A program made the position numbers and the translations under genes. From a virus, in the IMG/VR virus record IMGVR_UViG_3300011260_000073, positions 719 to 64,718 of that record: a DNA stretch of 64,000 bases; one strand, written 5' to 3'. Positions 15,184 to 58,381 of the stretch are shown piece by piece (positions within the stretch are counted from its first letter, which is position 1; each line of letters opens with the position of its first letter). Under the pieces are notes generated by a model. The model was not told where the DNA came from. It worked only from the letters and a program-made list of their open reading frames with translations, and did not search any database.

Positions 15184-15187
15184 GTGA

Positions 15188-16438: not shown

Positions 16439-16441
16439 AAT

Positions 16442-18055
16442 CTATCTCCTCGGATACCAGGCTGCGTTCAGCATGGGGACTGCGTTAATCGGTTGGCCAG
16501 TATCTTGTATAAGCGCTGGCAGCTCTGGCAATGGGTCAGGCGTTCCAGCAGCTAACTGCTTCGCCCGCAGATTATCGTACAGTTCTCTGTGTGTCGTCTC
16601 CAGCTCAGGGGTCAGTATAACAAAATCTAGCTCTAAATCCGGCAGAGTTACTGGGTATCCACCGGGAGTGTGCGTACCTGCGTCCACATCCAGCCAGCTC
16701 CCCCAGCCTTTACCGTCGCTAGTTACGGCCACGGCTCGGTTAGTCGTGGCTAGGTATCTGTTGTTGGCGTGACCAATCATCGGGTACACATCACCCGTCA
16801 CTGTATGCGCGTACTGAGGGAACGTCTGTGGTGTTACCGCCGCGTCGAAGCCGGGGACATCCTCTGGTGATAGTCCGGTCTCGACTATTTTGAATTTGTT
16901 CTTGGTTCTGGCTTTAGCAGATAGGTACTGGAGCAGGTCAGTGTCTTCCACCGGCTCGTCACCTTTCATCACGCCTGTGCCTACCACAGCAAGTCGGCTT
17001 ATATCTAGGTACGATATTAGGAACGTGTACCTGTAGTTATCCCACCAGACCCAAGTCGGTTCGAAGAATAACTCCTCGCCCTCAAGCGTCTCCATGACCA
17101 GAAACTCATTGAAGTTGGTCTCGTCACCGGTGGCATGCAAAGCGGCTATGGTCACCTCGTCGTTGTAGTAATCAACAGCGAACACCTCTTTACCGCGCTC
17201 GAGAGGGTACTCATCAACCTCAACGGCCAGCGTAACGTTACCGTCCACGTCACGGTCAGCGGTTATGGACAGTTCTATCACTGCCCCGAAATCGAAGCTG
17301 CCGGGCGGGTCACCGTTCTCATCAAACATCAGGGTTACAGCTTTAGTTCCGTCATGGTTAAAGCGCCAGTACGAAGTCCACTCCATGTCAGCACCAACCT
17401 TGTCGACCCATGACGGGTACACCGGTTCGTCTGTTATGAAGTCAGCTGTGTCAGATATGGATTCTGCTGCGTACACTACGCCGTTGGAGTCTACGCCAAC
17501 CAGTATGCCGTTGTTGATTGCAGCGGCGTTAATCAGCATGCCAGCAGGCCCACTGACACGAGTGTCAGCTGAGAAGTTAGTAACTTCGGGCGGTAGGTCT
17601 AAAGGGTCTGCGGCATCTGTATTGAACGTACTCACGTACCGTCGTTGCAACCCACCGGTCACAACCTTCTTACCACGATACCATGGGTTGTTGCACACAC
17701 CGCCAAGGTCAGGGTCGGGGCCAGCTACATCATAGTTGGTTAGTATGCGCGACTCATCTAATTGTGTGCTACTTACTTTCGAAGACTTAGGGGAGAACTG
17801 ATGTGCGGTTCGGTAGTTACCAACATCTTTGATGTAGGTGAAGAACTCATATCCAGGTACAGCTAGTTCAGCACGAATAACAATACGCTCGTTACCCCCG
17901 GACGTGCTGCTTATATTTACAAGCACGCCGTGGGTAGGAGCGTATGTCATAGTCATCGTACGCCATTGACGCATAGCTCGCAGGCGAACCATTGCGTGAG
18001 GGAGCCATTTAGCTGCTCTCAGCTTATCACCGAGTAGCTCCTTATGGACTGGCAT
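16442..18055 (-). CDS. virion structural protein
   Basis: This 537-residue protein is beta-rich with many Asp/Gly/Thr turns. The N-terminal region is basic (K-L-R-A-A-K-W-L-P-H-A-M-V-R-L-R-A-M-R-Q-W-R), followed by mixed beta domains. No catalytic motif is visible. It sits between the small virion protein and the propeller cluster in the late operon, with gaps of 3 and 6 bases. A tail-tube or tail-hub subunit is plausible from position, but the family is not recognised. Confidence 0.6.
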   Translation of the reverse strand: MPVHKELLGDKLRAAKWLPHAMVRLRAMRQWRTMTMTYAPTHGVLVNISSTSGGNERIVIRAELAVPGYEFFTYIKDVGNYRTAHQFSPKSSKVSSTQLDESRILTNYDVAGPDPDLGGVCNNPWYRGKKVVTGGLQRRYVSTFNTDAADPLDLPPEVTNFSADTRVSGPAGMLINAAAINNGILVGVDSNGVVYAAESISDTADFITDEPVYPSWVDKVGADMEWTSYWRFNHDGTKAVTLMFDENGDPPGSFDFGAVIELSITADRDVDGNVTLAVEVDEYPLERGKEVFAVDYYNDEVTIAALHATGDETNFNEFLVMETLEGEELFFEPTWVWWDNYRYTFLISYLDISRLAVVGTGVMKGDEPVEDTDLLQYLSAKARTKNKFKIVETGLSPEDVPGFDAAVTPQTFPQYAHTVTGDVYPMIGHANNRYLATTNRAVAVTSDGKGWGSWLDVDAGTHTPGGYPVTLPDLELDFVILTPELETTHRELYDNLRAKQLAAGTPDPLPELPALIQDTGQPINAVPMLNAAWYPRR

Positions 18056-23019: not shown

Positions 23020-23973
23020 TTAGACCGTTACCTCGTCCCCGCGCAAGTTAGAAATCTGTTCATCGGTCAGATTGTCGAATTCTTTCTCGGACAACTGCAT
23101 TGGGTCGATGCCCTTATTCATGCCGTTGTTGCCATTATCCGCACCGCCCATCTTGCCGGGCTGCTTGTTATGGGTTTCGAGATTCTTGTCGACATTGGTC
23201 TGTCGTGGCTTGGCACCGTCTGCTGCAGGAGCTGCACCTAGCAGTACACTAGCCGCTTTTGATAACGCCTCAGCAGGAGCGTAGCCAATAGCTTCATAAC
23301 CCGATTTCATCTCTGCCATCTCGGTATCAAGCGCAGCATCATAGGTTGGAGAATCAGGGTCAATAACTGGGAAGTCTTTCTCGTAGCTAGACAGCAAAGT
23401 ACCGGCGGCAACTGCGTTTTGCGTCTTTGTGGAAGCCGCAGCAGTTTTCTCATCAACGTATGCCTGGTTAATCTGTCGCTCTACTTTGCGCATGTCCTGA
23501 CGAATTGCTCGAGCCTCGGCTGTAGTACCATCAGCAATAGCTGCATCGAGCTTATCGTCGAGAGCTTCGAGCTGTGTTTCCAGAGCACCGACACCACCTT
23601 CATCAGCCTTGGCAGCAGCACCGCCAGCGCCTTTTAAAGCCGCAAGTTCGTCTTCTGCAACAATACGAGCATCGCGTTCACGGTTGGCGCGCTGCGTTGC
23701 GGCATCCATCCGCGCCTTTGGCACGTGATAATTCTTTTCTTCGCCTTTACCATCATCACCTGCAGCGGCAGTTTTAGCAGCATCATCATCACCTGCAGCA
23801 GCAGCGACGGCAGCATCGTCGCCTGCAGCAGCGGCCTTGGCAGCATCGTCATCACCTGCAGCGGCAGCAGCGGCAGCGGCATCGTCATCACCTGCGCCAC
23901 CGAGGTCATTACCCGCACCATCAGTTTCGTCCATGTATCCGCTGCGTGCCAATAAGTTCATCCATTTGTTCAT
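23020..23973 (-). CDS. capsid scaffolding protein
   Basis: This 317-residue acidic protein has a conspicuous Ala/Gly/Asp repeat block at residues 25-75 (units like A-A-G-D-D-D-A-A-K), a coiled-coil centre (E-T-Q-L-E-A-L-D-D-K-L-D-A-A-I) and a short C-terminus ending in D-N-L-T-D-E-Q-I-S-N-L-R-G-D-E. Such a protein directly upstream of the major capsid gene is the usual scaffold, which guides shell assembly and then leaves. No protease motif is visible. Confidence 0.75.
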   Translation of the reverse strand: MNKWMNLLARSGYMDETDGAGNDLGGAGDDDAAAAAAAAGDDDAAKAAAAGDDAAVAAAAGDDDAAKTAAAGDDGKGEEKNYHVPKARMDAATQRANRERDARIVAEDELAALKGAGGAAAKADEGGVGALETQLEALDDKLDAAIADGTTAEARAIRQDMRKVERQINQAYVDEKTAAASTKTQNAVAAGTLLSSYEKDFPVIDPDSPTYDAALDTEMAEMKSGYEAIGYAPAEALSKAASVLLGAAPAADGAKPRQTNVDKNLETHNKQPGKMGGADNGNNGMNKGIDPMQLSEKEFDNLTDEQISNLRGDEVTV

Positions 23974-26063: not shown

Positions 26064-27059
26064 TTAGTAAGCCCCGCCATCTATAGTACCGGTAGCTAAA
26101 GCCAATGGCGTAAGCGCTCGTGTATTATCTGTACCAGTTGTTAATTCAGCTGCTGTAGCTAACTCAACAACGCCTGATACGGTAGTAGAAGCGGCCAACT
26201 CATCACCTGTGTTAGTTCCAGATTGGCTACCAAGCAGAGTCTGTTCAGCATCACTAAACTCGTTAGTATCTGCATTACTTTCATACTGAGTTTTGATTGA
26301 CGCAGCAGTTAGGTTAGCCTGTACGATAGTCCAATCAGTAACAGCGGCTGCATCAACAGATGTTTCTTCAGCAATAAGAACATCGCCTACTTCAAGTGGT
26401 ACTGTGAAGAATGTGCCAGCAACTGTAACAGTGTAAGTATCACCTACTACAATAGAAGGCGAGCCTGTGTCTAATGCTGGTGTATTTGTTGAAGCGTTGT
26501 AAGCGCCTTTATAGGACATGCCAGCAGTAATCTGCGAGGCAACATATGCTTTAACAGATTGCTGAGTAGGTACTTTAGTATCAGAATCAGTCACCATAGT
26601 ATCTTCGTCGATAACGAAGCCCATCAGCGCTGTACTCGTATCCGACTCCATGACTGCACCAGCGGCGGCTACATTAGTGGCATCAGTTACATCAGCGAGA
26701 GCTTCAATACCATCGACTTTACTTTGTAAGTCAGAACTGGCCAAACCAAGAGGTGAGATAGTACGAGCGTCGTCAGTACCGGTGTTAATTTCTGCGGCGG
26801 TTGCAATCTCCGCGACACCAACAACAGTTGTACTGGCAGCTGGCTCATCGCCTGTGTTGGTACCAGAAGTGTTGCCAAGGACTACTTTTTCAGCATCAGT
26901 GACCGGGTTAAAGGTAACGATGGATGGAGAGCCGTCATCCTTCTCGATGAATAGTTTGCCGTCCCAATCGTTAATAGCAAGCTCACCAGCAACCAGGTCA
27001 CCAGTTGTTGGTACGGCTGTCGTAGTGGAACTGCGTTTATGTAGTAGTGTAGTAGCCAT
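26064..27059 (-). CDS. tail fibre with duplicated SGTNTGDE modules
   Basis: This 331-residue protein begins with the same L-H-K-R-S-S-T-T-T-A-V-P module as the short fibre. It then carries two copies of a module S-G-T-N-T-G-D-E-x-A-A-S-T-T-V-x-G-V-x-E-x-A-T-A-A-E (about residues 60-105 and 270-320). The C-terminus (A-L-T-P-L-A-L-A-T-G-T-I-D-G-G-A-Y) is related to that of the upstream 440-residue fibre. This suggests modular duplication and recombination of fibre parts. Confidence 0.7.
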   Translation of the reverse strand: MATTLLHKRSSTTTAVPTTGDLVAGELAINDWDGKLFIEKDDGSPSIVTFNPVTDAEKVVLGNTSGTNTGDEPAASTTVVGVAEIATAAEINTGTDDARTISPLGLASSDLQSKVDGIEALADVTDATNVAAAGAVMESDTSTALMGFVIDEDTMVTDSDTKVPTQQSVKAYVASQITAGMSYKGAYNASTNTPALDTGSPSIVVGDTYTVTVAGTFFTVPLEVGDVLIAEETSVDAAAVTDWTIVQANLTAASIKTQYESNADTNEFSDAEQTLLGSQSGTNTGDELAASTTVSGVVELATAAELTTGTDNTRALTPLALATGTIDGGAY

Positions 27060-33272: not shown

Positions 33273-33759
33273 CGTCGTCAGTCTCGGCGTTTTCGTCCAC
33301 TTCGTTCGGAATTTCATAGAACTCGGCGTCGATAATCATCTCGTCACCGGCTTCTGCAATTAATTCAACCAAGGCCTGCTCCGAGAGGTCTTCGAGCTGG
33401 GTGACAATACGTTTTTGGGCACCGGTAATCTCCAGTGTGCGCTTCTCGGGGGCGTAGTTACCCTGCATTTTGTTCAGTTCGCCATAGCCACGAATCATTC
33501 CAAGCGGGTCTGCCTGCAATTTGGCAATATTTATAGCATCGAGGACACCCGCTTCGATATCTTTACGGGTAATCCGTGCTTCAGAGCGAATTTGTTCCTT
33601 AATGGCTTCGTATTGGGCGAGTATTTCAGGCTTGGCGAGCAAATCTCTGCATGATTTATCAGCATTCTTGTAACCGGCGTAGCCAGCAGCCTGAATAGGC
33701 ACCATGCCCATCTGTATACCTTCAAGAAACTTTTCCGGGGTAGGATTATGCTTCGCCAT
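33265..33759 (-). CDS. terS: terminase small subunit
   Basis: This is a 164-residue protein from ATG 33759, chosen because GGAGG lies 9 bases upstream. It has an N-terminal helical DNA-recognition region (P-T-P-E-K-F-L-E-G-I-Q-M-G, A-A-G-Y-A-G-Y) and an acidic C-terminal tail rich in Glu and Asp, the usual TerS architecture. It selects the packaging start site and stimulates TerL. The 3' end overlaps TerL by 8 bases and the 5' end overlaps the small basic gene by 14 bases. Confidence 0.85.
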   Translation of the reverse strand: MAKHNPTPEKFLEGIQMGMVPIQAAGYAGYKNADKSCRDLLAKPEILAQYEAIKEQIRSEARITRKDIEAGVLDAINIAKLQADPLGMIRGYGELNKMQGNYAPEKRTLEITGAQKRIVTQLEDLSEQALVELIAEAGDEMIIDAEFYEIPNEVDENAETDDDA

Positions 33760-33886
33760 ATGCGACACCCTCCTTGAATCTCTTCAATTCACGGTTAGAA
33801 TTCCCTTCTCTCTGGGTGTTTGAGAACACTCGACGATTTTTTTTAGTCTTATCCTGCCGGTGCTGCGGTTTCTGCTTGCGGTTCAT
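33746..33886 (-). CDS. very basic small protein upstream of TerS
   Basis: This 46-residue frame is rich in Arg, Lys and Gln (N-R-K-Q-K-P-Q-H-R-Q-D-K-T-K-K-N-R-R-V-F). It starts at an ATG with AAGGA 8 bases upstream and ends inside the TerS start region. It may be a DNA-binding leader peptide or nothing more than an overlapping frame. The good ribosome-binding site is the main support. Confidence 0.45.
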   Translation of the reverse strand: MNRKQKPQHRQDKTKKNRRVFSNTQREGNSNRELKRFKEGVAYGEA

Positions 33887-33919
33887 TGTCTCTATCCTTG
33901 AGAACTAGATTTCATGGAT

Positions 33920-33925
33920 ATTATA
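33920..33925 (-). promoter_or_regulatory. possible -10 element upstream of the TerS operon
   Basis: On the minus strand a perfect TATAAT occurs about 35 bases before the small basic gene. No convincing -35 hexamer lies 16-18 bases further upstream, so this is only a weak promoter candidate for packaging and structural genes. Confidence 0.3.
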
Positions 33926-33946
33926 GACAGAGTATGGGGTGTTTTG

Positions 33947-34138
33947 CTAATGCAGCTCCCTACCATCAAGCGGCGAGTTGTTTTCTATCCAATCTAACGG
34001 GGTTAATTTAGGGTCACCTTCCACTGCGTCAATCATTTCAAAGACACGGTCTCTCGCAACGTCGTCATCATCGCAGATAGCATAAATCATCCGAATGGCT
34101 TGGCAAAAATAATAAATTTCATCTGGACTGTCGGACAT
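33947..34138 (-). CDS. small acidic hypothetical protein
   Basis: This 63-residue protein has C-D-D-D-D-V-A-R-D-R-V-F-E-M-I-D-A. It starts two bases after the stop of the gene upstream and has no membrane segment. It belongs to the two-gene start of the minus-strand unit and is therefore possibly expressed early in that direction. Function is unknown. Confidence 0.65.
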   Translation of the reverse strand: MSDSPDEIYYFCQAIRMIYAICDDDDVARDRVFEMIDAVEGDPKLTPLDWIENNSPLDGRELH

Positions 34139-35418: not shown

Positions 35419-35555
35419 ACAGAGCACGCAGAGCATGGCACCGCAAGTGGGATGACATCATCTTCACAGCAGGTGTTATATTTTTAATGACGTTCTTTAC
35501 TGCCCTGTGCATGGGCGTTATCTATGCAAAGTCACTACAACCCGTTTACCTCTAG
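35415..35555 (+). CDS. small single-pass membrane protein
   Basis: This 46-residue protein has a basic N-terminus (N-R-A-R-R-A-W-H-R-K-W) and then one hydrophobic span (I-I-F-T-A-G-V-I-F-L-M-T-F-F-T-A-L-C). The basic-in topology is clear. The function is unknown. Confidence 0.55.
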   Translation: MNRARRAWHRKWDDIIFTAGVIFLMTFFTALCMGVIYAKSLQPVYL

Positions 35556-35565
35556 GAGACACACC

Positions 35566-35769
35566 ATGAAGAAAGTAACACTCAGTTTCAACGTTCCAAC
35601 ATTCTCAATGCCAAACATTCCAAGCGTCGATGTTACCGTGCTCAAAGATGCTGCGAGTGCAGTGCTGGTGGACACCACCTCAGCTGCACGCGGCAGCGTA
35701 GCTCGGCAACTTAGCTGCTTGGCTTCTTATATCGAACCTTCAAAAGAGGCAGCAACTAAACCAGAGTAA
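35566..35769 (+). CDS. small hypothetical protein
   Basis: This is a 67-residue protein from ATG 35566, chosen because AGGAG lies 9 bases upstream; an alternative ATG at 35524 lacks one. It contains V-P-T-F-S-M-P-N-I-P-S-V-D-V-T-V and an amphipathic C-terminal half. It is the last gene before the 594-base iteron region. Confidence 0.6.
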   Translation: MKKVTLSFNVPTFSMPNIPSVDVTVLKDAASAVLVDTTSAARGSVARQLSCLASYIEPSKEAATKPE

Positions 35770-35955
35770 CGAAACCCCTATATTCATAGGCTCTAAGCAT
35801 TCTAAAACACTTAGCGTCTATGTTTATAGGTACTTTTGTCTGTGTACATGAGAGAGGGGGAGCGGGGTCGTAGAGCCCATATTCACCGACCTGAGGGAAA
35901 CACAAAAACTTAACTCTTTGATTTCACTACAGCAGTATATTAGGAAAACCCTATG
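35770..35955. other. gene-free left part of the iteron region
   Basis: No start codon with a ribosome-binding site and no coding composition is seen here. Just after the preceding gene are two small hairpins: CCTAT-ATTC-ATAGG (about 35779-35792) and a CTAAG/CTTAG pair, followed by CTAT-GTTT-ATAG at about 35818-35829. They may end the upstream transcript, but there is no U run. Confidence 0.4.
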
Positions 35956-36297
35956 TGTTACGAAAATGGCCTGCACTTGCCCCATACAGATATAGTGTTT
36001 TACTCTTACCCCAATAATACATACCTTTTTTGTTCTACTAACTTTAACCTCTTTTTGGAACAAATAGCCTTATATCCTATATTCTCCCTGTAAATCAGTC
36101 ACTTAGAGTGTTACGAAATTTCGTAACAGTTACGATATTTTTCGTAACATAGCCCTTATGCTCAAAAACCAAGAAACAGCAAAACCGTGCTACTCGCCTA
36201 CCCAGATACCAAGGTGTTACGAAAATGACCTCTCTAAGTCATTGATGTTCCAAAAACGTTCCAATAAATAACCCAGTTTCGTAACACTTTCGTAACA
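35956..36297. repeat. iteron-like cluster of TGTTACGAAA repeats
   Basis: Seven exact copies and one degenerate copy of the 10-mer TGTTACGAAA occur in 342 bases of gene-free DNA. Plus orientation: 35956-35965, 36109-36118 and 36215-36224. Minus orientation: 36119-36128, 36140-36149, 36277-36286 and 36288-36297. The degenerate plus copy is at 36128-36137. Copies 36109 and 36119 abut to form a perfect 20-bp palindrome. Paired, spaced copies of this kind are typical of replication-origin iterons or repressor operators. A second motif, TGTTCCAAAAA, is present at 36246-36256 and inverted at 36052-36062. Confidence 0.7.
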
Positions 36298-36323
36298 CCC
36301 ACGCTTTTCGTGCCTCAAAGCGC

Positions 36324-36355
36324 TCGGATTCCACTCAAATATCATTAACAAGGAG
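36324..36355 (+). promoter_or_regulatory. repeated leader element before SLOG gene
   Basis: TCGGATTCC is followed 7 bases later by TATCATTAACAAGGAG. The same pair, with 6 bases between and GAGGAG in the second part, occurs at 34667-34697 upstream of the first rightward gene. The second half includes the ribosome-binding site. This looks like a shared translation or promoter element. Confidence 0.45.
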
Positions 36356-36363
36356 TAACAAAC

Positions 36364-36714
36364 ATGTCAGAACTTCGACTAATCATTGCTGGGTCACGTG
36401 CTTTTAATAACTACGACTCATTGGTCAATGCTATGGAACAACTTAATATCCAACCTACTACTATAATCAGTGGCACTGCTCGTGGCGCTGACCGTCTGGG
36501 AGAACGCTACGCTAAAGAACACAACATCAAATTAATACGCATGCCTGCTGACTGGAATACATATGGTAAAAGCGCTGGGTACCTGCGCAACAAAGCCATG
36601 GCTGAACGAGCTGATATGTTAATAGCCCTTTGGGATGGTATCAGTCCCGGCACGCAGCACATGATTAACATTGCTACTGCCAAACACCTCACCATCCACG
36701 TAATTAAGGAGTAA
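36364..36714 (+). CDS. YspA-like SLOG family protein (DUF2493)
   Basis: This 116-residue protein has the SLOG/YspA signature. G-S-R-A-F-N-N-Y is at the start, then I-S-G-T-A-R-G-A-D-R-L-G-E-R-Y-A. The C-terminal block is G-Y-L-R-N-K-A-M-A-E-R-A-D, then W-D-G-I-S-P-G-T. The Rossmann-like fold is thought to bind a nucleotide or ADP-ribose-like ligand. It is common in phages, and its role in infection is not settled. AAGGAG precedes the ATG, just after the iteron region. Confidence 0.85.
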   Translation: MSELRLIIAGSRAFNNYDSLVNAMEQLNIQPTTIISGTARGADRLGERYAKEHNIKLIRMPADWNTYGKSAGYLRNKAMAERADMLIALWDGISPGTQHMINIATAKHLTIHVIKE

Positions 36715-36903: not shown

Positions 36904-37131
36904 ATGCCAGATGACTACACAGCGAATAACCCAGACATCGTCATCACCCCAACCGAAACGATGATTTCATTCCCTAAAACAAGAGAGGTCACAACCCTGA
37001 CCCCAGCTAGTATCACGCTGTACTTAGACCAAGCAGACTTCGTCACCGGAGTACCCGCATCACTGAGCATTGATGAAATATTACACATCATTAAAACTCA
37101 CTATGAAGGAGACCATAATGACTCGGATTGA
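36904..37131 (+). CDS. small hypothetical protein, beta-rich
   Basis: This 75-residue protein has a Thr/Pro-rich N-terminal half (N-P-D-I-V-I-T-P-T-E-T-M-I-S-F-P) and a helical C-terminus (S-I-D-E-I-L-H-I-I-K-T-H-Y). An AGGAG site precedes the ATG. It resembles the 63-residue protein at 37302 in having a V-I-I-S-P/V-I-T-P beta start, so the two may be diverged paralogues. Confidence 0.55.
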   Translation: MPDDYTANNPDIVITPTETMISFPKTREVTTLTPASITLYLDQADFVTGVPASLSIDEILHIIKTHYEGDHNDSD

Positions 37132-41640: not shown

Positions 41641-41733
41641 GGGTAAGAGGCAGATATTGGCTTTAGCTGCAGCAGACTGTAAATCTGTATTCGGCTTGAC
41701 CGGGTGTTGGTTCGATTCCAACCTTACCCACCA
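41641..41733 (+). tRNA. tRNA-Tyr (GTA)
   Basis: The acceptor arms GGGTAAG (41641) and CTTACCC pair, and CCA is encoded. The anticodon stem GCAGA/TCTGT holds the loop CTGTAAA with anticodon GTA (Tyr). A long variable arm and the T arm GTTGG-TTCGATT-CCAAC complete a type II bacterial tRNA-Tyr. Confidence 0.85.
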
Positions 41734-42139: not shown

Positions 42140-42457
42140 ATGATAACTAAAACTCAACGTTACTTACTAAGTAAACTACCAACCAAAATACAAAATAAAA
42201 TTACTATTATAACTAATGGTTGCTGGCTATGGTCAGGCGAGCTTAATAGAAACGGATATGGTCGCTGCTGATATAACGGCAAGCGCCATATGGCACATCG
42301 CTTAACATACACATTATTAAAAAGCTGTATAGGCGAAGGCTTATTACTCGACCATAACTGTCGTACCCGTAATTGTTGTAACCCAACACATGCTAGTCCA
42401 GTAACACACCAACATAATACTCACCGAGGCAAAGCGAGGCTATTCAAAAATGCTTAA
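42140..42457 (+). pseudogene. HNH endonuclease interrupted by an in-frame TGA
   Basis: The 105-codon reading shows an HNH_3-type endonuclease: W-L-W-S-G-E-L-N-R-N-G-Y-G-R, then A-H-R-L-T-Y, then L-D-H-N-C-R-T-R-N-C-C-N-P-T-H. Codon 44 (42269-42271) is TGA, where the family often has an aromatic residue (a Trp codon TGG to TGA change would do it). The rest of the frame is intact to a TAA at 42455-42457, overlapping the next gene. A nonsense mutation, TGA read-through or sequencing error are the options. Weak ribosome-binding site GGAAAAG. Confidence 0.65.
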
Positions 42458-42665
42458 TACAATACCCTGTCCCTTCTGCGGCGAAACTGAACATCTAAGA
42501 ATAGATGATGCTTCTGAAAAAGACAGTTGCTGTACTGGTCTTGGTGTAATCTGCGACGCTACCAAAGGCGGCTGTGGTGCCACAGGCGGCTATGCGCCAA
42601 CCAAAGAAGAAGCTGTTACTAAATGGGAAAAAAGGAAGAAAAATGAAACTTATTTACACTCGTAG
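42450..42665 (+). CDS. Lar-like restriction-alleviation zinc-finger protein
   Basis: This 71-residue protein has C-P-F-C-G near the N-terminus, further Cys residues (C-C, C-D, G-G-C-G) and W-E-K-R. That layout matches the Lar-family restriction-alleviation proteins that many phages carry. It may help the phage evade type I restriction. It overlaps the HNH remnant by 8 bases. Confidence 0.65.
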   Translation: MLNTIPCPFCGETEHLRIDDASEKDSCCTGLGVICDATKGGCGATGGYAPTKEEAVTKWEKRKKNETYLHS

Positions 42666-43531: not shown

Positions 43532-45898
43532 ATGCGCATCACGTTCCTTAGTGCTGGCAACACGCCACTGACAAAAAAATTCGAACGTGGGGCGCAAAAA
43601 CAGCTAATCAAGCATAACTATCCGCACGTTCGTAACTTCTCATCCGAAACCTATGAAATAAAAGACCTCAAGAATTTCACTCTTCTGCTACAGTCAGAAG
43701 CTAATGCAAACCACTGTCTGCTTAAAGGTGAAATCCAGCGCGAACTCATTAACGAATCCCGTGCAGGAAGCACAACCAGTGGAGTATCAACTGAATGGTT
43801 ATGCCTCGATATCGATGGCCTCCCCGGCGTAACTACTGTAGCTGAATTCTTGTGGCTTATGCCTAAAGAGTTCCGTGGGGTGCAACACGTTATTCAATAC
43901 TCAGCAAGTATGGGCGTTGACCCTAAGAAAGGACTCAGCGCACACATATTCTTCCAACTGGATAAACCATATTTTCCAGCGGAACTAAAAGAATGGCTGG
44001 TATACCTTAACCACACTGTCCCAATCCTTGAGTCTAATCTAAACCTCGCACGTAGTAACTGCGTCCTAAAATGGCCACTTGATATATCAGTGGTACAAAA
44101 CGACAAGCTCATCTACATCGCACCACCAGTACTTGGTAAAGGCGTTGTAGATAAACTACGAGGCAAGCGCATAGCGTTTGTCGCTGGCAAAGCCAAACTC
44201 AAACCAAGCATGGCCGGAGCATTACCAGATGCCAACGCAAAGAAAACTAAAGCAAAAATCAATGCTTTACGAGACAAGCTCGACCTTCCTAAGCGAACTC
44301 GTGTGGACGACAAAATGGTCCAAGGTATTATGGTGGCATGCGCACCGGGAACTGCTCGCGTTACTCAGCGACGCGAAGCTGACGACTTCATCTACCTCAA
44401 CATCAATGGTGGCGACTCATTTGGCTACTACCACCCAAAGAATAACTTCGAATTTCTATATAACTTCAAAGGTGAACCGAATTATAGGATTAAAGAGTTC
44501 TTACCTGATTACTATGCAAGCCTTGCGGTTACCCCCAAAGTTATCACCCCCGGCATCGAGTACCTTGCTTTTCTTGACCCTAAAGAAGACCAGTATTATC
44601 GAGGAACTTATGAAGCCGCCTCAGGCTTTTATGACATACATCGAGCAGGCAATGTCACAAAGGTTCAAAGTTTCCTCGGTCAACATGGGCAACCGGTACC
44701 CGAAAACATACCTGAATGGGAAGTTGCTTTCGAGTTTGACAACCCCACCGTAGTAGACAGCAAGCAACAGTTCCTTAATAAATATGCGCCATCCGAACAT
44801 ATGAGCGCTGATAACCTTAAAAGAAAAGTCACTACTATCCCACCAACCATTAAGAAAGTAATCTTACATGCGCTTGGCAATGATAAAGACAGCTATGATT
44901 ATTTCCTTAACTGGCTTGCTGCAATCATTCAACATCGAACAAAGACTGGCACCGCCTGGATTCTCCATGGTACTCAAGGAACCGGTAAAGGACTTTTGTT
45001 TCACAACATTCTCACGCCCCTTGTTGGACGTGACTATGCCTCGAGCACCGGACTCTACGCCTTTGAAAAAGAATTCAATGGCTTCATGGAACAAAGTGTC
45101 TTCCTACTTATCGACGAGGCCGAGATATCCTCCTTGCGTAATCAGGAAGAAGTCATGGCGAAACTTAAGTCCTCTATAACAGAGAACGAGATACCTATTC
45201 GCAAAATGCGTACTGATTATTACAATGCCCGCAACTACACAAACATAATTATCGCTTCAAACAAACATGATGCAGCACAAATTGACGACAATGACCGTCG
45301 CTTTAATGTAGCGCGTCGTCAAGAAAAGAGTTTAAAAATAACTGACAGAGAACTAGATAAAATAAAAGCAGAACTACCTAACTTCGCATCTTACCTACAA
45401 CACTGTAAATGCAATGTTGCACAGGCTCGCAAGCCGCTAATCAATAAAGACCGCGAGATGATGCAAAAGATTACACGAGATTCCAACGAGGCTATTGCTG
45501 ATGCGGTACATAAAGCTGACTTTGACTTCTTTTTTGATTTCAGACCTACCGAGGAAGACCCAGCTACCCTGGCACTATTATCGGGAAGTAGTAGCATGCC
45601 TAGTTATGACGAAGCTATGCTCCAACTCTTCATTCACAACCGCCTTACTCGAGATGCACTTAGAACCTTGTTCTATTACATTAACGCAGTCTCTTTCAAG
45701 ACAGCACATAAAGCAACAAAATTCTTGGCGCATAAAGAACTACCAACAACACGTATCCGCGTTGATGGCAGGATACAACACGGATATGCGCGTGAAGAGA
45801 ACATTAACCCGCTCTCGTACACCAAGGACGCGCAAGCATGGCTGAACAAATTAATGTCCCAGAGCAAAGACAAACCGAAGCTGAGAAGCGTCAAATAA
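43532..45898 (+). CDS. phage primase-helicase (AEP-like primase plus SF3-type helicase)
   Basis: This 788-residue protein has an N-terminal half fitting an archaeo-eukaryotic-type primase region, with the acidic strand W-L-C-L-D-I-D-G-L-P-G and Y-S-A-S-M-G-V-D-P-K-K-G. The C-terminal D5/VapE-like helicase (PF19263 type) has Walker A G-T-Q-G-T-G-K-G at about residues 480-487, Walker B F-L-L-I-D-E-A-E at about 525-531 and the sensor strand I-I-I-A-S-N-K-H-D. It would prime and unwind DNA at the fork. It starts after a clear gap, so a promoter may lie upstream. It partners with the family-A polymerase further on. Confidence 0.85.
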   Translation: MRITFLSAGNTPLTKKFERGAQKQLIKHNYPHVRNFSSETYEIKDLKNFTLLLQSEANANHCLLKGEIQRELINESRAGSTTSGVSTEWLCLDIDGLPGVTTVAEFLWLMPKEFRGVQHVIQYSASMGVDPKKGLSAHIFFQLDKPYFPAELKEWLVYLNHTVPILESNLNLARSNCVLKWPLDISVVQNDKLIYIAPPVLGKGVVDKLRGKRIAFVAGKAKLKPSMAGALPDANAKKTKAKINALRDKLDLPKRTRVDDKMVQGIMVACAPGTARVTQRREADDFIYLNINGGDSFGYYHPKNNFEFLYNFKGEPNYRIKEFLPDYYASLAVTPKVITPGIEYLAFLDPKEDQYYRGTYEAASGFYDIHRAGNVTKVQSFLGQHGQPVPENIPEWEVAFEFDNPTVVDSKQQFLNKYAPSEHMSADNLKRKVTTIPPTIKKVILHALGNDKDSYDYFLNWLAAIIQHRTKTGTAWILHGTQGTGKGLLFHNILTPLVGRDYASSTGLYAFEKEFNGFMEQSVFLLIDEAEISSLRNQEEVMAKLKSSITENEIPIRKMRTDYYNARNYTNIIIASNKHDAAQIDDNDRRFNVARRQEKSLKITDRELDKIKAELPNFASYLQHCKCNVAQARKPLINKDREMMQKITRDSNEAIADAVHKADFDFFFDFRPTEEDPATLALLSGSSSMPSYDEAMLQLFIHNRLTRDALRTLFYYINAVSFKTAHKATKFLAHKELPTTRIRVDGRIQHGYAREENINPLSYTKDAQAWLNKLMSQSKDKPKLRSVK

Positions 45899-46877: not shown

Positions 46878-47065
46878 TTTACTTTTTATGGTTTGCGCTT
46901 TATATTCTCATCGGTACTGAAATACTTATCTGCTTAGACAGATATGAACCCCCTGAGTATAAATCACTAATATTCGAATTAATCATATTCATTATAGCCT
47001 GGCTCCCGCTTCTGATTGTATTCATAGCTCTTGAGGCGAAACGACATGTCCAAAAGAGAAGTTAA
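46874..47065 (+). CDS. small membrane protein
   Basis: This 63-residue protein has two hydrophobic segments, residues 2-20 (I-Y-F-L-W-F-A-L-Y-I-L-I-G-T-E-I-L-I-C-L) and 33-53, separated by Y-E-P-P-E-Y-K. It overlaps both neighbours. Topology suggests a two-pass inner-membrane protein. Confidence 0.6.
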   Translation: MIYFLWFALYILIGTEILICLDRYEPPEYKSLIFELIIFIIAWLPLLIVFIALEAKRHVQKRS

Positions 47066-47414
47066 TTGCGATTATTGCGGCAAACCAGCTATTCTTATAG
47101 ACAGTAAAGAAATCTACGGTAAAAGCTACGGCATGGTATGGAGCTGCAAACCTTGCGGTGCTCATGTGGGAACACATAAAAACAGCGAAGATTATAAGCC
47201 ACTAGGGCGCTTAGCTAATAGCCACCTACGCCGTTTAAAAAGCGCCGCACATAAAGCCTTCGACCTATTATGGAAATATGGTGAGCTATCTCGTACAGAA
47301 GCTTATGACTGGCTAGCTACTAAATTAAACATACCACTAAAGGAATGCCATATAGGTATGTTCGGACCAAAAGAATGCAAACAAGTGGTAATCCTTTGTG
47401 AAAAATTCACGTAA
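47046..47414 (+). CDS. DUF3268-type zinc-finger domain protein
   Basis: This is a 122-residue protein from ATG 47046, where GAGGCGAAACG is upstream. It has C-D-Y-C-G and later C-K-P-C-G-A-H-V-G-T-H-K, then P-L-G-R-L-A-N, then A-Y-D-W-L-A-T-K-L-N-I. This matches my memory of the DUF3268 zinc-finger family of phages and bacteria. It probably binds nucleic acid, and its function in phage is unclear. Confidence 0.75.
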   Translation: MSKREVNCDYCGKPAILIDSKEIYGKSYGMVWSCKPCGAHVGTHKNSEDYKPLGRLANSHLRRLKSAAHKAFDLLWKYGELSRTEAYDWLATKLNIPLKECHIGMFGPKECKQVVILCEKFT

Positions 47415-50619: not shown

Positions 50620-50765
50620 AAGGTGTTACTAAAACACCATTCAAGACTGTCGCTATTGGCGAAACTACATCTTACTGGGTTATAGAACATGGCAACAAGA
50701 AACATAGGGTTAACAAAGGCGCGTGTCGCAGCCCGACGCAAAGCCGCAAAAAAGGCAAAGCCTAG
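50586..50765 (+). CDS. candidate small gene with a non-standard start
   Basis: This frame has no ATG, GTG or TTG between its upstream stop and its end. The composition is convincing: R-I-E-G-V-T-K-T-P-F-K-T-V-A-I-G-E-T-T-S-Y-W-V-I, then K-K-H-R-V-N-K-G-A-C-R-S. An ATT at 50586 has AGG seven bases upstream. Both neighbours overlap it. Either ATT starts translation, or it is a non-coding frame that looks good by chance. Confidence 0.3.
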   Translation: MNIKLLCYQRIEGVTKTPFKTVAIGETTSYWVIEHGNKKHRVNKGACRSPTQSRKKGKA

Positions 50766-52113
50766 TTGGAAGCACCAGAAGAAAACGCTTAAGCTTGCGA
50801 AAGCCTCCCCGCTTGTTATGGACGGCAGTGACCCTGGCACTGGTAAGACTCGTGCTCATCTTGAAAGCTTCGCAGAACGACGTGCTGCCGGTAGTGGCTG
50901 TGCCCTGGTACTCGCCCCCAAAACTCTATTAGAAACATCATGGGACGCTGATGCATTCGAGTTCACGCCTGACATGATAACTAGCGTGGCCTATGCCAGT
51001 AACCGCCAGAAAGCTTTCGACTTCGACGCTGACATCTACATCACCAACCTCGATGCTATTAAATGGGTAGCTAAGCAACCAGCGAAATTCTTTAAGAGGT
51101 TCGACACACTCATCATCGATGAAGCTACTGCTTATAAGAACCGCACCAGCCAGCGCAGCAAGGCCACGGCCAAGGTTGCTCGGCACTTCACCCACAAGGC
51201 CATACTATCAGGCACCTTCATGGCTAAGTCAGTACTGGACGTGTGGCATCCTATATTCATACTTGACGGGGGGCAGCGCCTCGGCAAGAGTTTCTTCCAG
51301 TTCCGCGCCTCAGTCTGTCACCCTCAACAAGTAGGGCCTCGACCAGAGCACATACAATGGGTAGACAAGCCCGGCGCAGAAGAAGCCGTGACCTTCCTGT
51401 TGAAAGACATCGCCATCAGACACGACTTCGATGACTGCATGGATATCCCACCAAACTATTCATATACACGTAGGATTATCCTACCACCTAAACTACAAAA
51501 ATCTTATGAAGAGTTCGCTGACCACGCAATACTTGAACTAACTAACGACAGAGTATCAGCAGTCAACGCCGCTAACGTGCAGGACAAGCTATTGCAAATT
51601 GCGTCAGGCGCTGTGTACTCAGAAGGCGGGTACCAGGTACTTGATACGTATCGTTACGAATACATTGTCGACTTGATTAAACAACGCAAGCACAGCGTTA
51701 CATTCTTTAACTGGCGACACCAGCGCCAACTGCTAACAGAGATAGCTGAAAACGAGGGGCTTGATTATGCAGTCATTGATGGAAATACTCCTAACAGAGA
51801 GCGAAAAGGAATTGTTGAACGGTATCAAGCAGGCGAGTATCAAACTATTTTCCTGCATCCACAAACCGGCGCACATGGACTTACGCTTACTAAAGGCACG
51901 CGAACAATTTGGTCTTCCCCGGTCTACATGCCCGATTTTGTTAAGCAGGGCAAGCACCGCATCTACCGTGGTGGGCAGACCAAACGTACAGAGACGATAT
52001 TTGTCTGCGCAAAGGGCACAGTAGAAGAAGCTGTTTACGAGAAACTAAATAACCGTCATGCCAAGATGGTTAACTTCCTCGACCTATTGAAGGAGTCGCA
52101 GAGCAATGAGTGA
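50689..52113 (+). CDS. SNF2-like DEAD-box-type helicase
   Basis: This 474-residue protein has Walker A D-P-G-T-G-K-T at about residues 48-54, a DEAT box (I-I-D-E-A-T-A-Y) at about 144, motif III L-S-G-T, and a helicase C domain ending in H-R-I-Y-R-G-G-Q-T-K-R-T-E-T-I. The Q-x-x-R-x-x-R-like block and the V-x-E-A-V-Y element agree with SNF2-family phage helicases. Probable role: DNA or RNA remodelling in replication or recombination. The start ATG 50689 lies within the candidate gene at 50586-50765. Confidence 0.85.
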   Translation: MATRNIGLTKARVAARRKAAKKAKPSWKHQKKTLKLAKASPLVMDGSDPGTGKTRAHLESFAERRAAGSGCALVLAPKTLLETSWDADAFEFTPDMITSVAYASNRQKAFDFDADIYITNLDAIKWVAKQPAKFFKRFDTLIIDEATAYKNRTSQRSKATAKVARHFTHKAILSGTFMAKSVLDVWHPIFILDGGQRLGKSFFQFRASVCHPQQVGPRPEHIQWVDKPGAEEAVTFLLKDIAIRHDFDDCMDIPPNYSYTRRIILPPKLQKSYEEFADHAILELTNDRVSAVNAANVQDKLLQIASGAVYSEGGYQVLDTYRYEYIVDLIKQRKHSVTFFNWRHQRQLLTEIAENEGLDYAVIDGNTPNRERKGIVERYQAGEYQTIFLHPQTGAHGLTLTKGTRTIWSSPVYMPDFVKQGKHRIYRGGQTKRTETIFVCAKGTVEEAVYEKLNNRHAKMVNFLDLLKESQSNE

Positions 52114-52499: not shown

Positions 52500-52728
52500 A
52501 GACTGGATATCAGGCGAAGACCCTTACTCAGACGATAGAGATGCGGAAGACCAAGTCCTCAGTTATGAAAAGATAGAACATGAAACCGAGAAGGCAGTAT
52601 TCTTCTGTGTATCTAAAGATAAAAACCAATATGTATGGCTACCTAAATCTCAGATAGTCATTCATGAACAGAGCAAAGAAATACAAGTTCCTGCTTGGCT
52701 ATCTATAAATAAGGTACCTAAAAAATGA
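52489..52728 (+). CDS. small acidic hypothetical protein
   Basis: This 79-residue protein has E-D-W-I-S-G-E-D-P-Y-S-D-D-R-D-A-E-D and a beta-rich centre (A-V-F-F-C-V-S-K-D-K-N-Q-Y-V-W-L-P). GAGGCG lies before the ATG. It overlaps the RtcB start by four bases. Function is unknown. Confidence 0.55.
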   Translation: MSAEDWISGEDPYSDDRDAEDQVLSYEKIEHETEKAVFFCVSKDKNQYVWLPKSQIVIHEQSKEIQVPAWLSINKVPKK

Positions 52729-53957
52729 GCGACCAACGTAAATTTTTAGTCGATAACACTCAGCGTAATGTAATTAAACATTGGACTCGTGGTGTAATGC
52801 TTGATGACCGCGCTTTAGAACAACTACGTAATGTTGCTTCAATGCCCTTCGTCCATAAACATGTAGCCGCAATGCCCGATGCACACTGGGGTATGGGAGC
52901 AACTATTGGTTCGGTCATCGCTACCAAAGGTGCAATAATACCTGCAGCAGTTGGTGTTGATATTGGCTGTGGCATGATGGCCATCCAAACAACTTTAACA
53001 GCTAACGACTTACCAGATAACTTACATGCCTTGCGCTCCCATATTGAACAAGTTGTTCCTCATGGTCGTACTAATAATGGGCAAAAAGGTGACCGTGGAG
53101 CTTTTAGCACTCCACGTACTCTTAGCCATGCTATTCGTTGGGATGCTTTAGCTTCTCGATATAATACTATTCTTGAAAAACATCCTAAAGCCAAAGCATT
53201 CAATACATGGCAACATATGGGTACTCTTGGTACAGGCAACCACTTTATTGAAATTTGTCTTGATGAAGCTGACCAAGTATGGGTAATGCTTCATTCAGGC
53301 TCACGTGGAGCTGGTAATAGAATTGGTAGCTATTTCATTGAACGAGCTAAACGTGAAATGGAAAAGTATTTCATTGGTGACTATCTACCAGATAAAGATT
53401 TATCTTATCTTGTAGAACATACTGAACTGTTTGATGATTATGTTGAAGCTGTACAATGGGCGCAAGACTTCGCCCAAAGCAATCGCCAAGCTATGATGCA
53501 TGTAGTTATGAACGTCATTCGTACACAAGTACGTGACTTTTCATTAACAGAGCACGCAGTAAATTGCCACCACAATTACATTTCTAAGGAACACCATTTT
53601 AAAGAAAACGTATGGGTAACCCGTAAAGGCGCTGTACGCGCCAGAGAAGGCGACCTCGGCATTATTCCGGGCTCTATGGGCACTGGCTCCTTCATTGTAC
53701 GAGGCTTAGGCAGTGCTGATTCCTTCTGTAGTTGCTCTCACGGAGCAGGTCGTGTAATGTCTCGCGGTCAGGCCAAGAAAGAAATCTCTCTTGAGCAGCA
53801 TGCTACAGCCATGCAAGGCATCGAAGCTCGTCTGGACGCTGATGTACTGGATGAGAGCCCAGCTGCTTACAAGGATATTGGCGCTGTCATGAACGCTCAA
53901 AGCGACCTTGTAGAAGTCCTATACCGACTACGTCAAGTAGTTAACGTTAAAGGGTAA
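52725..53957 (+). CDS. rtcB: RNA-splicing ligase RtcB
   Basis: This 410-residue protein matches the RtcB family. Key sites: G-V-D-I-G-C-G-M with metal-binding Cys at residue 82, G-N-H-F-I-E, H-S-G-S-R-G-A-G-N, and S-C-S-H-G-A-G-R with the guanylylated His at about residue 339. RtcB joins 2',3'-cyclic phosphate RNA ends to 5'-OH ends, which repairs tRNAs cut by host nucleases such as PrrC-type anticodon nucleases. It is directly followed by a tRNA-Pro gene. Base composition and codon use do not look foreign. Confidence 0.95.
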   Translation: MSDQRKFLVDNTQRNVIKHWTRGVMLDDRALEQLRNVASMPFVHKHVAAMPDAHWGMGATIGSVIATKGAIIPAAVGVDIGCGMMAIQTTLTANDLPDNLHALRSHIEQVVPHGRTNNGQKGDRGAFSTPRTLSHAIRWDALASRYNTILEKHPKAKAFNTWQHMGTLGTGNHFIEICLDEADQVWVMLHSGSRGAGNRIGSYFIERAKREMEKYFIGDYLPDKDLSYLVEHTELFDDYVEAVQWAQDFAQSNRQAMMHVVMNVIRTQVRDFSLTEHAVNCHHNYISKEHHFKENVWVTRKGAVRAREGDLGIIPGSMGTGSFIVRGLGSADSFCSCSHGAGRVMSRGQAKKEISLEQHATAMQGIEARLDADVLDESPAAYKDIGAVMNAQSDLVEVLYRLRQVVNVKG

Positions 53958-53965
53958 TAGATAAT

Positions 53966-54043
53966 CCGTGTGTAGCTCAGTCTGGTTAGAGTTCTCGCTT
54001 TGGAAGCGAGATGTCAAAGGTTCAAATCCTTTCATGCGGACCA
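53966..54043 (+). tRNA. tRNA-Pro (TGG)
   Basis: The acceptor arms CCGTGTG (53966) and CATGCGG pair with two G.T pairs, then ACCA is encoded. The anticodon stem CTCGC/GCGAG holds the loop TTTGGAA with anticodon TGG (Pro). The T arm has GGTTCAAATCC. A T run follows (54044-54049), suggesting a terminator-like end. It starts 8 bases after the RtcB stop. Confidence 0.85.
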
Positions 54044-54389: not shown

Positions 54390-54661
54390 TGTGGCCATTT
54401 CATAAAAAACCAGCCAAAAAAACAAGGGGGGTAATTTACACGAGTTTTGAATTCGTAAGCTTTGATAATTCAAGCTATACGATTATACGTTGTAAGCAAC
54501 CACGCGCTGATGAAATACAAAAGATTCTGGAAGACAATAAATATAGAGGAACCCTATCTTTCCCGCTAACTTCTGGTACGGTCACAATAAAGATGAGAGA
54601 TATAAAGCGTACCGTTATCCAGAAACACGTAGTAACGGAAATTATAAATGAACCGTCCTAA
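54386..54661 (+). CDS. small hypothetical protein
   Basis: This 91-residue protein has a basic start (H-K-K-P-A-K-K-T-R-G) and beta-rich remainder (F-E-F-V-S-F-D-N-S-S-Y-T-I-I-R). It overlaps both neighbours. Function is unknown. Confidence 0.55.
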   Translation: MMWPFHKKPAKKTRGVIYTSFEFVSFDNSSYTIIRCKQPRADEIQKILEDNKYRGTLSFPLTSGTVTIKMRDIKRTVIQKHVVTEIINEPS

Positions 54662-56555
54662 AGATATAGTCGGGCTCGACTTTGAAACCTATTTTGACCA
54701 GAAATACTCACTCCGTAGCCCAAAGATGTCTACCAGTGAGTACGTACGTGATGAACGCTTTAAAATGCAATGCGTAGGTATTCGTACTAATCGTCAACGT
54801 AAAGCTCGCTGGTATACAGGCTACAATGCAATCAAAGCATTAAAATCTTTTGATTGGAAGAACACAGCTTTGCTCTGTCACAACACAGCATTCGATGGAC
54901 TTATCCTCAGCCATCATTACGATATCGTTCCAGCATACTATTACGACACACTGTCTATGGCACGCGCACTACACAGCAACCATATTGGTGCTGGTCTGGA
55001 TGAAGTCGCTAAATATTATGGTTACGCCGGTAAGGTGAAGGCCGATGCACTGAAGGCCACCAAGGGCATACGTGACCTGCCAGAAGAATTAATGACACCT
55101 CTTGGTGAATACTGCGCAGATGATGTCACCGACATGTGGAATATCTTTAAGCACATGGGCGAGAACTATCCGCAAGACGAACTGGATTTGATACACTACA
55201 CAATCAACGCATTCTGTAATCCTGTGCTCGACGTAGATGTTCCAAGGGCATCCAAGGAGTTAGTCCGTGCAACAAAAGAATCCAGAAAGCTCATACTCAG
55301 GACAACTAAGCTTGTTGGCACAGCAGGCCTCGCACCTAGAGACAAATACGATGCTACTATTAAAGCTTTACGAAGCAGAGAGATATTTGCTTCCTCCCTT
55401 AGACAGCAAGGTATCGAACCGCCAACAAAAATAAGTAAAGACACTGGCGAAGAAACGTACGCCTTCGCCAAGTCCGACCTCGACTTCCAAGCACTGTTCA
55501 AGCATCCTGATAAGAACATACGTACTTTATGCGAAGCCAAAAGCGAAGCCAGTTCTTCTATCTCCATCACGCGTGCTACGCGACTGATACAACGTGTAGA
55601 TGACGGTAATAAGCTGCCTATCATGCTCAACTACTGCCGAGCGCATACCTTCAGATGGTCAGGCGGTGACAAGCTCAACCCACAGAACTTCCCGGCACGT
55701 GGTAAGAACGGCAACGAATTACGCCGGTCTATCATCGCTCCTCGGGGTCAAAAGATTGTAGTCGTAGACAGCGGTCAAATTGAAGCACGGGTCATTGCAT
55801 GGCTTGCCGGCCAAGACGACTTACTCGATGTGTTCCGCGCCTCAGATAAAGGTAAGGGACCTGACCCGTACGTACTGCTTGCCTCAGACATCTACAATAG
55901 AACCATAACCAAAAAGGACAAAGAGGAGCGCTTCGTAGGCAAGGTCGGTGTACTAGGCCTCGGCTTCCAGATGGGCGCTCCACGCTATCAGGAGACGCTG
56001 GAGGCCGGTGTGATGGGGCCACCCGTCATTATCGACATGGCATTGGCACGCAAGACAGTGAGCACCTACCGCGCTAAGAACAAGCATATAGCCAATTACT
56101 GGGACTTCTTACAACGCATGATTCAGTTCATGCACCACGGTAAGGGTGAGCGAGAAGCCGGTGTACTGAACTTCCACGCAGACGGCGTAGATGTCCCTAA
56201 CGGGCTTACGCTGCTATACCCGGACATACGCCGTAAGCCTAGCGAGCGCTGGCCTGGTTCCCATGAGTACTCCTATCAGAACGGACGACAGCGCGGCAAG
56301 CTATACGGCGGTCTGTTCTCAGAGAACATTACCCAGTGTGTAGCACGTATTATCGTAGGTGAGCAGATGCTTAAAATCGCTGACCGTTACCGAGTAGTGA
56401 TGATGTCCCATGATGAAGTTGTATACCTAGCTCCAGACAAACAAGCTGAACGTGCTTACAACTTCGGCATCAAATGCTTAACCACGCCTCCGACATGGGG
56501 GACAGATATTCCTCTATCGGCAGAAGGCGGCTGGGATGACTGCTACAGTAAATAA
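54648..56555 (+). CDS. family-A DNA polymerase with 3'-5' exonuclease domain
   Basis: This 635-residue protein has a DnaQ-like N-terminal exonuclease domain with D-F-E-T-Y at about residues 10-14. The polymerase domain follows: motif A is D-S-G-Q-I-E-A-R-V-I-A-W, motif B region is R-F-V-G-K-V-G-V-L-G-L-G-F-Q-M-G, and motif C is H-D-E-V-V-Y at about residue 588. It is shorter than Pol I but usual for phages. It is the main replicative polymerase. No thioredoxin-binding loop is obvious. It overlaps neighbours at both ends. Confidence 0.92.
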   Translation: MNRPKDIVGLDFETYFDQKYSLRSPKMSTSEYVRDERFKMQCVGIRTNRQRKARWYTGYNAIKALKSFDWKNTALLCHNTAFDGLILSHHYDIVPAYYYDTLSMARALHSNHIGAGLDEVAKYYGYAGKVKADALKATKGIRDLPEELMTPLGEYCADDVTDMWNIFKHMGENYPQDELDLIHYTINAFCNPVLDVDVPRASKELVRATKESRKLILRTTKLVGTAGLAPRDKYDATIKALRSREIFASSLRQQGIEPPTKISKDTGEETYAFAKSDLDFQALFKHPDKNIRTLCEAKSEASSSISITRATRLIQRVDDGNKLPIMLNYCRAHTFRWSGGDKLNPQNFPARGKNGNELRRSIIAPRGQKIVVVDSGQIEARVIAWLAGQDDLLDVFRASDKGKGPDPYVLLASDIYNRTITKKDKEERFVGKVGVLGLGFQMGAPRYQETLEAGVMGPPVIIDMALARKTVSTYRAKNKHIANYWDFLQRMIQFMHHGKGEREAGVLNFHADGVDVPNGLTLLYPDIRRKPSERWPGSHEYSYQNGRQRGKLYGGLFSENITQCVARIIVGEQMLKIADRYRVVMMSHDEVVYLAPDKQAERAYNFGIKCLTTPPTWGTDIPLSAEGGWDDCYSK

Positions 56556-58352: not shown

Positions 58353-58381
58353 TCCCCAACCCTCATGAGGAGGATGCCATT

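What the first reader, a model, noticed from the sequence alone, without database searches (positions are those of the whole stretch)
35956..36297. Iteron-like cluster of TGTTACGAAA with a 20-bp palindrome
Seven exact copies and a degenerate one lie in 342 bases of gene-free DNA, two of them abutting in a perfect palindrome. This is what an origin or a multi-site operator looks like. No replication initiator or CI-type repressor is recognisable, so the binding protein would be new.
Basis: partly seen in the sequence, partly recalled or inferred. Interest (0 to 1): 0.7.

Follow-up and report, generated by a model that had tools for sequence, protein, structure and literature searches.

The report
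Phage replication origin with iterons
This stretch is very probably where a KPP25-like phage starts copying its DNA: repeated short sites that its own primase-helicase would bind, beside an easily melted stretch; relatives use different site 'words' and mostly carry a second such origin on the other side of the genome.

Summary
Seven exact TGTTACGAAA copies, one degenerate copy and a 20-bp palindrome lie at 35956-36297, and there are none elsewhere in the phage's 65.7-kb record. The best reading is a replication origin. Pseudomonas phage KPP25 (terminase 38%, primase 35% identical) has the same word clustered in a syntenic gap, on the least stable DNA of its genome. Further relatives of this phage's primase carry iteron clusters around AT-rich DNA, usually just 5' of the primase gene. 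The word differs by lineage (TATTACG, GTTCCGAA, AAGTGTAA, TTGGAAG).

ORF 43532-45898 is a D5/DUF5906 primase-helicase close to NrS-1 phage polymerase (E 5e-58), with a predicted C-terminal winged helix like that of SaPI/SCCmec initiators, whose origins are iterons. NrS-1 itself has 11 AGTGTAAC iterons directly after its polymerase gene.

Unexpectedly, eight relatives, KPP25 included, have a second, mostly paralogous AT-rich iteron region at the 3' end of a giant structural gene, 0.39-0.5 genome away. The window phage has one cluster only.

Binding and origin activity are inferred, not shown. The kind is known (SaPI/NrS-1-like); the two-origin layout and changing site words are new.

The parts
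35770..36363 (.). gene-free gap holding the proposed origin
   Evidence: between ORFs 35524-35769 and 36364-36714; 61% AT against 53% for the window
35956..35965 (+). iteron TGTTACGAAA, copy 1
   Evidence: exact
36109..36118 (+). iteron copy 2 (left half of palindrome)
   Evidence: exact
36119..36128 (-). iteron copy 3 (right half of palindrome)
   Evidence: exact
36128..36137 (+). degenerate iteron AGTTACGATA
   Evidence: 2 mismatches; KPP25 and G001 carry TGTTACGATGTTACGATCTT beside their AT-rich cores
36140..36149 (-). iteron copy 4, 21 bp from copy 3
   Evidence: exact
36215..36224 (+). iteron copy 5
   Evidence: exact
36277..36286 (-). iteron copy 6
   Evidence: exact
36288..36297 (-). 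iteron copy 7, 11 bp from copy 6
   Evidence: exact
35984..36099 (.). AT-rich, easily melted segment between iterons 1 and 2 (proposed unwinding element)
   Evidence: 63-69% AT in 100-bp steps; less stable than 99.6-99.9% of 80-100-bp segments of the window
43532..45898 (+). D5/DUF5906 primase-helicase, proposed initiator
   Evidence: DUF5906 1.3e-17; profile matches NrS-1 primase CTR 6k9c/6k9e E=5e-58; model matches NrS-1 CTR, poxvirus D5/E5, SaPI5 PriRep1
44963..45301 (+). SF3 helicase domain (aa 478-590)
   Evidence: PF19263 match aa 478-590
45605..45790 (+). predicted winged-helix domain (about aa 692-753), proposed iteron reader
   Evidence: conserved C-terminal signature; AlphaFold pLDDT 81, order H-b-H-H-b-b
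54648..56555 (+). family-A DNA polymerase of the same replication module
   Evidence: PF00476 7.6e-16
50689..52113 (+). SNF2-type helicase of the replication module

Best explanation
35770-36363 is the phage's origin of DNA replication. Copies of the winged-helix domain at the C-terminus of the phage's D5/DUF5906 primase-helicase (43532-45898) bind the TGTTACGA(AA) iterons on both strands. Helicase hexamers assemble there, melt the AT-rich DNA at about 35984-36099, unwind outward and lay primers for the phage's family-A polymerase. Shown here: the sites, their exclusivity, their conservation in KPP25, the AT-rich core, the family-wide pairing of iterons with this primase, and the primase's fold class. 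Inferred: binding, melting, loading and direction of replication.
For: (1) KPP25 has the same word in the syntenic gap 26218-26895 although its proteins are only 35-40% identical. (2) Its two clusters coincide with the two least stable 80-bp segments of 64 kb. (3) Primase relatives have clusters of lineage-specific words around AT-rich DNA, usually 0-1 kb 5' of the primase: G040/G042 TTGGAAG, G043 AAGTGTAA, G045 GTTCCGAA, L197 ATTCCAA; 2.6 kb in G025, TATTACG. (4) NrS-1 has 11 copies of AGTGTAAC right after its polymerase gene. (5) Other phages with TGTTACGA clusters carry them at the 3' end of D5-type primase-helicase genes: G031 DUF5906, G032 DUF927+Cch HTH, G033 Prim-Pol. (6) Structure and profile place the protein with NrS-1, D5/E5 and SaPI5 PriRep1. 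(7) Among the loci of 84,980 bacterial genomes that hold the inverted pair, only one has 4 or more copies clustered, so a host regulator is unlikely.
Against: In the window phage the cluster is 7.2 kb from the primase gene, not adjacent. Its AT-rich core is among the least stable 0.1-0.4% but is not the minimum of the genome. GC skew shows no turn there. The Foldseek match of the isolated C-terminal domain to winged helices is weak (best E 0.075; NrS-1 CTR probability 0.82 but E 0.31). No binding or replication data exist. Most early ORFs have no known domain, so another binder cannot be excluded.
Confidence: 0.78

Rival explanations
1. A multi-site operator: a phage transcription factor binds the sites to control the rightward early genes that start at 36364.
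For: The gap lies upstream of plus-strand genes and relatives' clusters often lie in the primase 5' region. A palindromic pair suits a dimeric repressor.
Against: In NrS-1 and in G031, G032 and G033 the clusters lie 3' of the gene, not at its promoter. Second copies lie between late genes at the 3' end of a structural gene. The consistent AT-rich core is not an operator feature. No repressor-type HTH protein was recognised.
Confidence: 0.1
2. The origin is real but the iterons are read by another, unrecognised phage protein; the primase-helicase is only loaded there.
For: Many early ORFs have no domain assignment. In the window phage the cluster is 7 kb from the primase.
Against: The early proteins shared by KPP25, phiA008 and the window are replication enzymes and one zinc-finger protein. 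In most relatives the cluster abuts or is close to the primase gene. SaPI Rep and SCCmec Cch2 bind iterons with their own C-terminal domain (PMC7581432).
Confidence: 0.15
3. A packaging, partition or copy-control (titration) site rather than an origin, above all for the second copies in late regions.
For: KPP25, G001 and G045 carry two clusters, one among late genes. Iterons can also act in copy control (general knowledge).
Against: The window cluster is single and lies in the early module. Both copies have the same kind of AT-rich core.
Confidence: 0.06

Closest known systems
SaPI Rep / SaPI5 PriRep1 origin (staphylococcal pathogenicity islands)
   Same: Short iterons at the origin; initiator helicase whose C-terminal domain reads them (PMC7581432); PriRep1 is a structural match of the window primase.
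   Different: SaPI origins lie directly 3' of rep. Here the cluster is 7.2 kb upstream of the primase; the element is a roughly 65-kb phage with its own polymerase. Iteron words were not compared.
NrS-1 phage primase-polymerase (Nitratiruptor phage)
   Same: Closest solved protein (E 5e-58). Its genome has 11 AGTGTAAC iterons directly after the polymerase gene, the same core word as relative G043.
   Different: The window has a separate family-A polymerase, a different iteron word, and the origin is not next to the gene. The NrS-1 structure paper suggests the 8-nt recognition sites as possible origin and, in the passages read, does not mention iterons (PMC7102993).
SCCmec Cch2 with AAGTG iterons
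   Same: The isolated C-terminal domain binds origin iterons; A-family polymerase partner (PMC7581432).
   Different: Staphylococcal cassette; three 5-nt iterons; priming by CCPol-MP rather than by the helicase polypeptide.
Phage P4 alpha protein and its ori/crr
   Same: Primase-helicase-initiator in one protein; short type I iterons at ori and at a second site, crr (own knowledge, not tested here).
   Different: P4's repeats are another word; P4 is a satellite; crr lies near ori, whereas the second clusters here are 26-34 kb away.
Pseudomonas phage KPP25 (Kochitakasuvirus)
   Same: Same genome layout, same iteron word, syntenic cluster.
   Different: KPP25 has two clusters 31.8 kb apart; the window phage has one.

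Membership tests
Iteron origin of D5-type primase-helicase replicons (SaPI / NrS-1 / P4 kind) | several copies of a short word within a few hundred bp, absent elsewhere | tested here: met
   7 in 342 bp, 0 elsewhere in 65.7 kb
Iteron origin of D5-type primase-helicase replicons (SaPI / NrS-1 / P4 kind) | AT-rich unwinding element within the repeats | tested here: met
   63-69% AT at 35984-36099; least stable 0.1-0.4% of segments
Iteron origin of D5-type primase-helicase replicons (SaPI / NrS-1 / P4 kind) | genome encodes an SF3/D5 primase-helicase | tested here: met
   43532-45898
Iteron origin of D5-type primase-helicase replicons (SaPI / NrS-1 / P4 kind) | C-terminal winged-helix DNA-binding domain on that protein | tested here: inconclusive
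   predicted H-b-H-H-b-b fold, pLDDT 81, conserved signature; Foldseek support weak
Iteron origin of D5-type primase-helicase replicons (SaPI / NrS-1 / P4 kind) | origin adjacent to the initiator gene (usual, not universal) | tested here: not met
   7.2 kb apart in the window; adjacent or within about 1 kb in G040, G042, G043, G045, L197 and NrS-1
Iteron origin of D5-type primase-helicase replicons (SaPI / NrS-1 / P4 kind) | initiator binds the iterons and the DNA replicates from them | not testable with these tools
   needs EMSA/footprint and an origin-activity assay
RepA-type plasmid iteron origin | Rep_1/Rep_3/RepA initiator gene | tested here: not met
   none among about 45 window ORFs scanned, mostly early and replication genes
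DnaA/oriC-type origin | TTATNCACA DnaA boxes in the cluster | not tested
   none seen on reading 35700-36400; no formal scan
CI-type multi-operator | repressor gene with HTH beside the sites | tested here: not met
   neighbours 35524-35769, 36364-36714 (matches 'GTP-binding domain' and DprA-like PHROGs) and 36904-37131 show no HTH match

The most novel reading that the evidence does not exclude
KPP25-like phages replicate from two paralogous iteron origins on nearly opposite sides of the genome, one by the primase or early genes and one at the 3' end of a ~2000-aa structural gene. The two copies within a genome stay matched to one another and to the primase's winged helix while the shared site word changes between lineages. 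The window phage and its sister G025 have only one origin.
Probability: 0.5. Interest if true: 0.72.

Novelty: new variant of a known kind. Interest (0 to 1): 0.6.

Why it matters
It names an origin and an initiator for a phage group (Kochitakasuvirus and relatives) for which none was found in the papers read. It gives a natural series in which one initiator family is paired with several different words, so how the winged helix sets the site can be tested directly. The paired origins raise a concrete question: does such a phage genome fire both? It also points to an iteron array directly behind the well-studied NrS-1 polymerase gene.

Tried and rejected
GC skew: no inflection at the cluster. 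Nucleotide BLAST of the gap against phages: no match, so the KPP25 match is only in the words and the layout. Host-regulator idea: the inverted pair occurs at 63 loci in 84,980 bacterial genomes, mostly as lone pairs, and only L260 has 5 copies, with no Pfam domain in its largest upstream ORF. A second cluster in the window: none by word, by BLAST of the gap against the window, or by stability. A single-sequence primase search of viral contigs found nothing; the alignment search found 17. phiA008 (primase 27%) shows no cluster. The tree does not resolve whether the window+G025 and KPP25+G001 pairs are sisters, so TGTTACGA may be ancestral or regained. L122, L116, L135 and L136 have runs of the word that were not followed up. 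Clusters in G038 near 62.3 kb and in G051 near 7.3 kb look like coding or simple repeats, not iterons.

Full report
OBSERVATION. The seven exact TGTTACGAAA copies, the degenerate AGTTACGATA and the 20-bp palindrome are at the stated coordinates. Shuffled sequence gives 0.13 copies per 64 kb, and none lies elsewhere in the 65,748-bp record. The record's ends overlap by about 443 bp at 89% identity, so it is essentially a complete genome. Within sub-clusters the sites are spaced by 10, 11 and 21 bp, close to whole helical turns. The near-identical contig L008 keeps all seven; its six differences in the gap fall outside them.

WHAT PHAGE. Structural genes read leftward (about 4.0-34.4 kb) and early/replication genes rightward (34.4-64 kb). 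Among named phages, terminase, primase and DNA polymerase are closest or nearly closest to Pseudomonas phage KPP25 (Kochitakasuvirus) and its kin, at 35-40% identity. The replication module holds a DUF5906 primase-helicase, a RecB-like nuclease, a SNF2 helicase and a family-A polymerase.

THE SAME WORD IN KPP25. KPP25 has a 676-bp gap between genes (26219-26894) in the same place, early in the rightward genes. The gap holds five exact TGTTACGAAA and eight TGTTACGA. It is conserved at 97-100% in the other KPP25-like records of the phage collection. KPP25 has a second cluster at 58257-58542. The two least stable 80-bp segments of the whole KPP25 genome start at 26473 and 58328, inside the two clusters. 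The uncultured relative G001 also has two (2718-3023 and 33704-34020).

THE FAMILY. An alignment search found 16 clear relatives of the primase. Most lack TGTTACGA clusters but have clusters of other words: G045 GTTCCGAA (two clusters), G043 AAGTGTAA, G025 TATTACG, G040 and G042 TTGGAAG, L197 ATTCCAA. These usually flank an AT-rich core 0-1 kb upstream of the primase start; in G025 it is 2.6 kb. In G038, G051, L188, G049, G050, G041 and L196 weaker arrays were seen by eye or with low scores. G025, whose word differs from the window's by one base (TATTACG against TGTTACG), is also the window's sister by primase (44% identity, support 100/99).

BEYOND THE FAMILY. The nearest characterised protein is the NrS-1 phage primase-polymerase (E 5e-58 over aa 389-674). 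Directly after its gene (14895-17051) NrS-1 has 11 copies of AGTGTAAC at 17062-17377. The structure paper suggests the 8-nt recognition sites as possible origin and, in the passages read, does not mention these repeats (PMC7102993). Other phages with TGTTACGA clusters carry them at the 3' end of a DUF5906 (G031), DUF927 + Cch-HTH (G032) or Prim-Pol (G033) gene. SaPI Rep and SCCmec Cch2 bind iterons through their C-terminal domain at origins just downstream of their genes (PMC7581432).

THE INITIATOR. The full-length AlphaFold model of 43532-45898 (pLDDT 82.8) matches NrS-1 CTR (E 5.8e-26), poxvirus D5/E5 and SaPI5 PriRep1. The C-terminal domain carries the signature RDEL..LF.Y...P..PNKFTS.LKHH...V.G..V.GI across relatives. 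Modelled alone (pLDDT 81) it has the order H-b-H-H-b-b of a winged helix. Its Foldseek hits are winged-helix regulators and NrS-1 CTR, but at weak E-values, so this step is probable rather than shown. No other initiator or repressor was recognised among the ORFs scanned.

TWO ORIGINS. In KPP25, G001, G045, G038, G051, G040, G042 and G049 a second AT-rich iteron region lies at the 3' end of the homologue of the window's 2047-aa gene (4474-10617), 0.39-0.50 genome away from the first. In seven of the eight the two regions are detectably related by sequence (best E from 1e-8 to 1e-63; G049 91% over 162 bp, inverted); in G038 the similarity is weak (E 0.001). The shared synteny means this may be one inherited event, not eight. 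The window, G025 and G043 lack the second copy; G041 is undecided.

MECHANISM. The best reading is that primase-helicase molecules bind the iterons by their winged helix, assemble as hexamers, melt 35984-36099, and prime synthesis by the family-A polymerase. Direct binding, melting and origin firing are inferences. Confidence is about 0.85 for 'origin' and about 0.78 for 'origin read by this primase-helicase'.

NOVELTY. The kind, an iteron origin with a D5-type initiator, is known. New here are its assignment to KPP25-like phages, the lineage-specific words, the paired origins, and the NrS-1 array. The window phage itself lacks one usual feature, adjacency of origin and initiator gene, so it is filed as a variant that works like these systems.

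Noticed in passing
L186:17062-17377 (NrS-1 phage): 11 copies of AGTGTAAC/GTTACACT directly after the NrS-1 polymerase gene, within a stretch annotated as hypothetical ORF NRS1_29; probably the NrS-1 origin.
   Followed up: partly
window 36053-36062 and 36246-36266: GTTCCAA/TTGGAAC words lie among the iterons; they resemble the words of other lineages (GTTCCGAA, TTGGAAG) and may be a second site type or relics.
   Followed up: no
window 52725-54043: An RtcB RNA ligase gene sits directly beside a tRNA-Pro gene; a second tRNA (Tyr) is at 41641-41733.
   Followed up: no
window 1210-2316 and 63085-64000: Distant relatives of a DUF2201 (VWA-like) protein and an AAA ATPase of contig G010, a possible phage AAA-VWA pair.
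   Followed up: no
window 42450-42665 and 47031-47414: A small Lar-like (restriction alleviation) protein and a DUF3268 zinc-finger protein.
   Followed up: no
L102:29981-30125 (KPP25): 16 tandem copies of AGCCAGCCCA in the early region.
   Followed up: no
L254, L261, L263, L271, L284, L287, L295, L302, L303: In several Rhodobacteraceae-type genomes the inverted TGTTACGAAA pair recurs with spans of 37-38 bp, perhaps a chromosomal operator unrelated to the phage.
   Followed up: no
L249 and L267 (Saccharibacteria): Two 29-bp inverted TGTTACGAAA pairs 1.73 kb apart in two genomes.
   Followed up: no
window 23753-23894: Four copies of CAGGTGATGA within a structural gene region, probably a coding repeat.
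   Followed up: no
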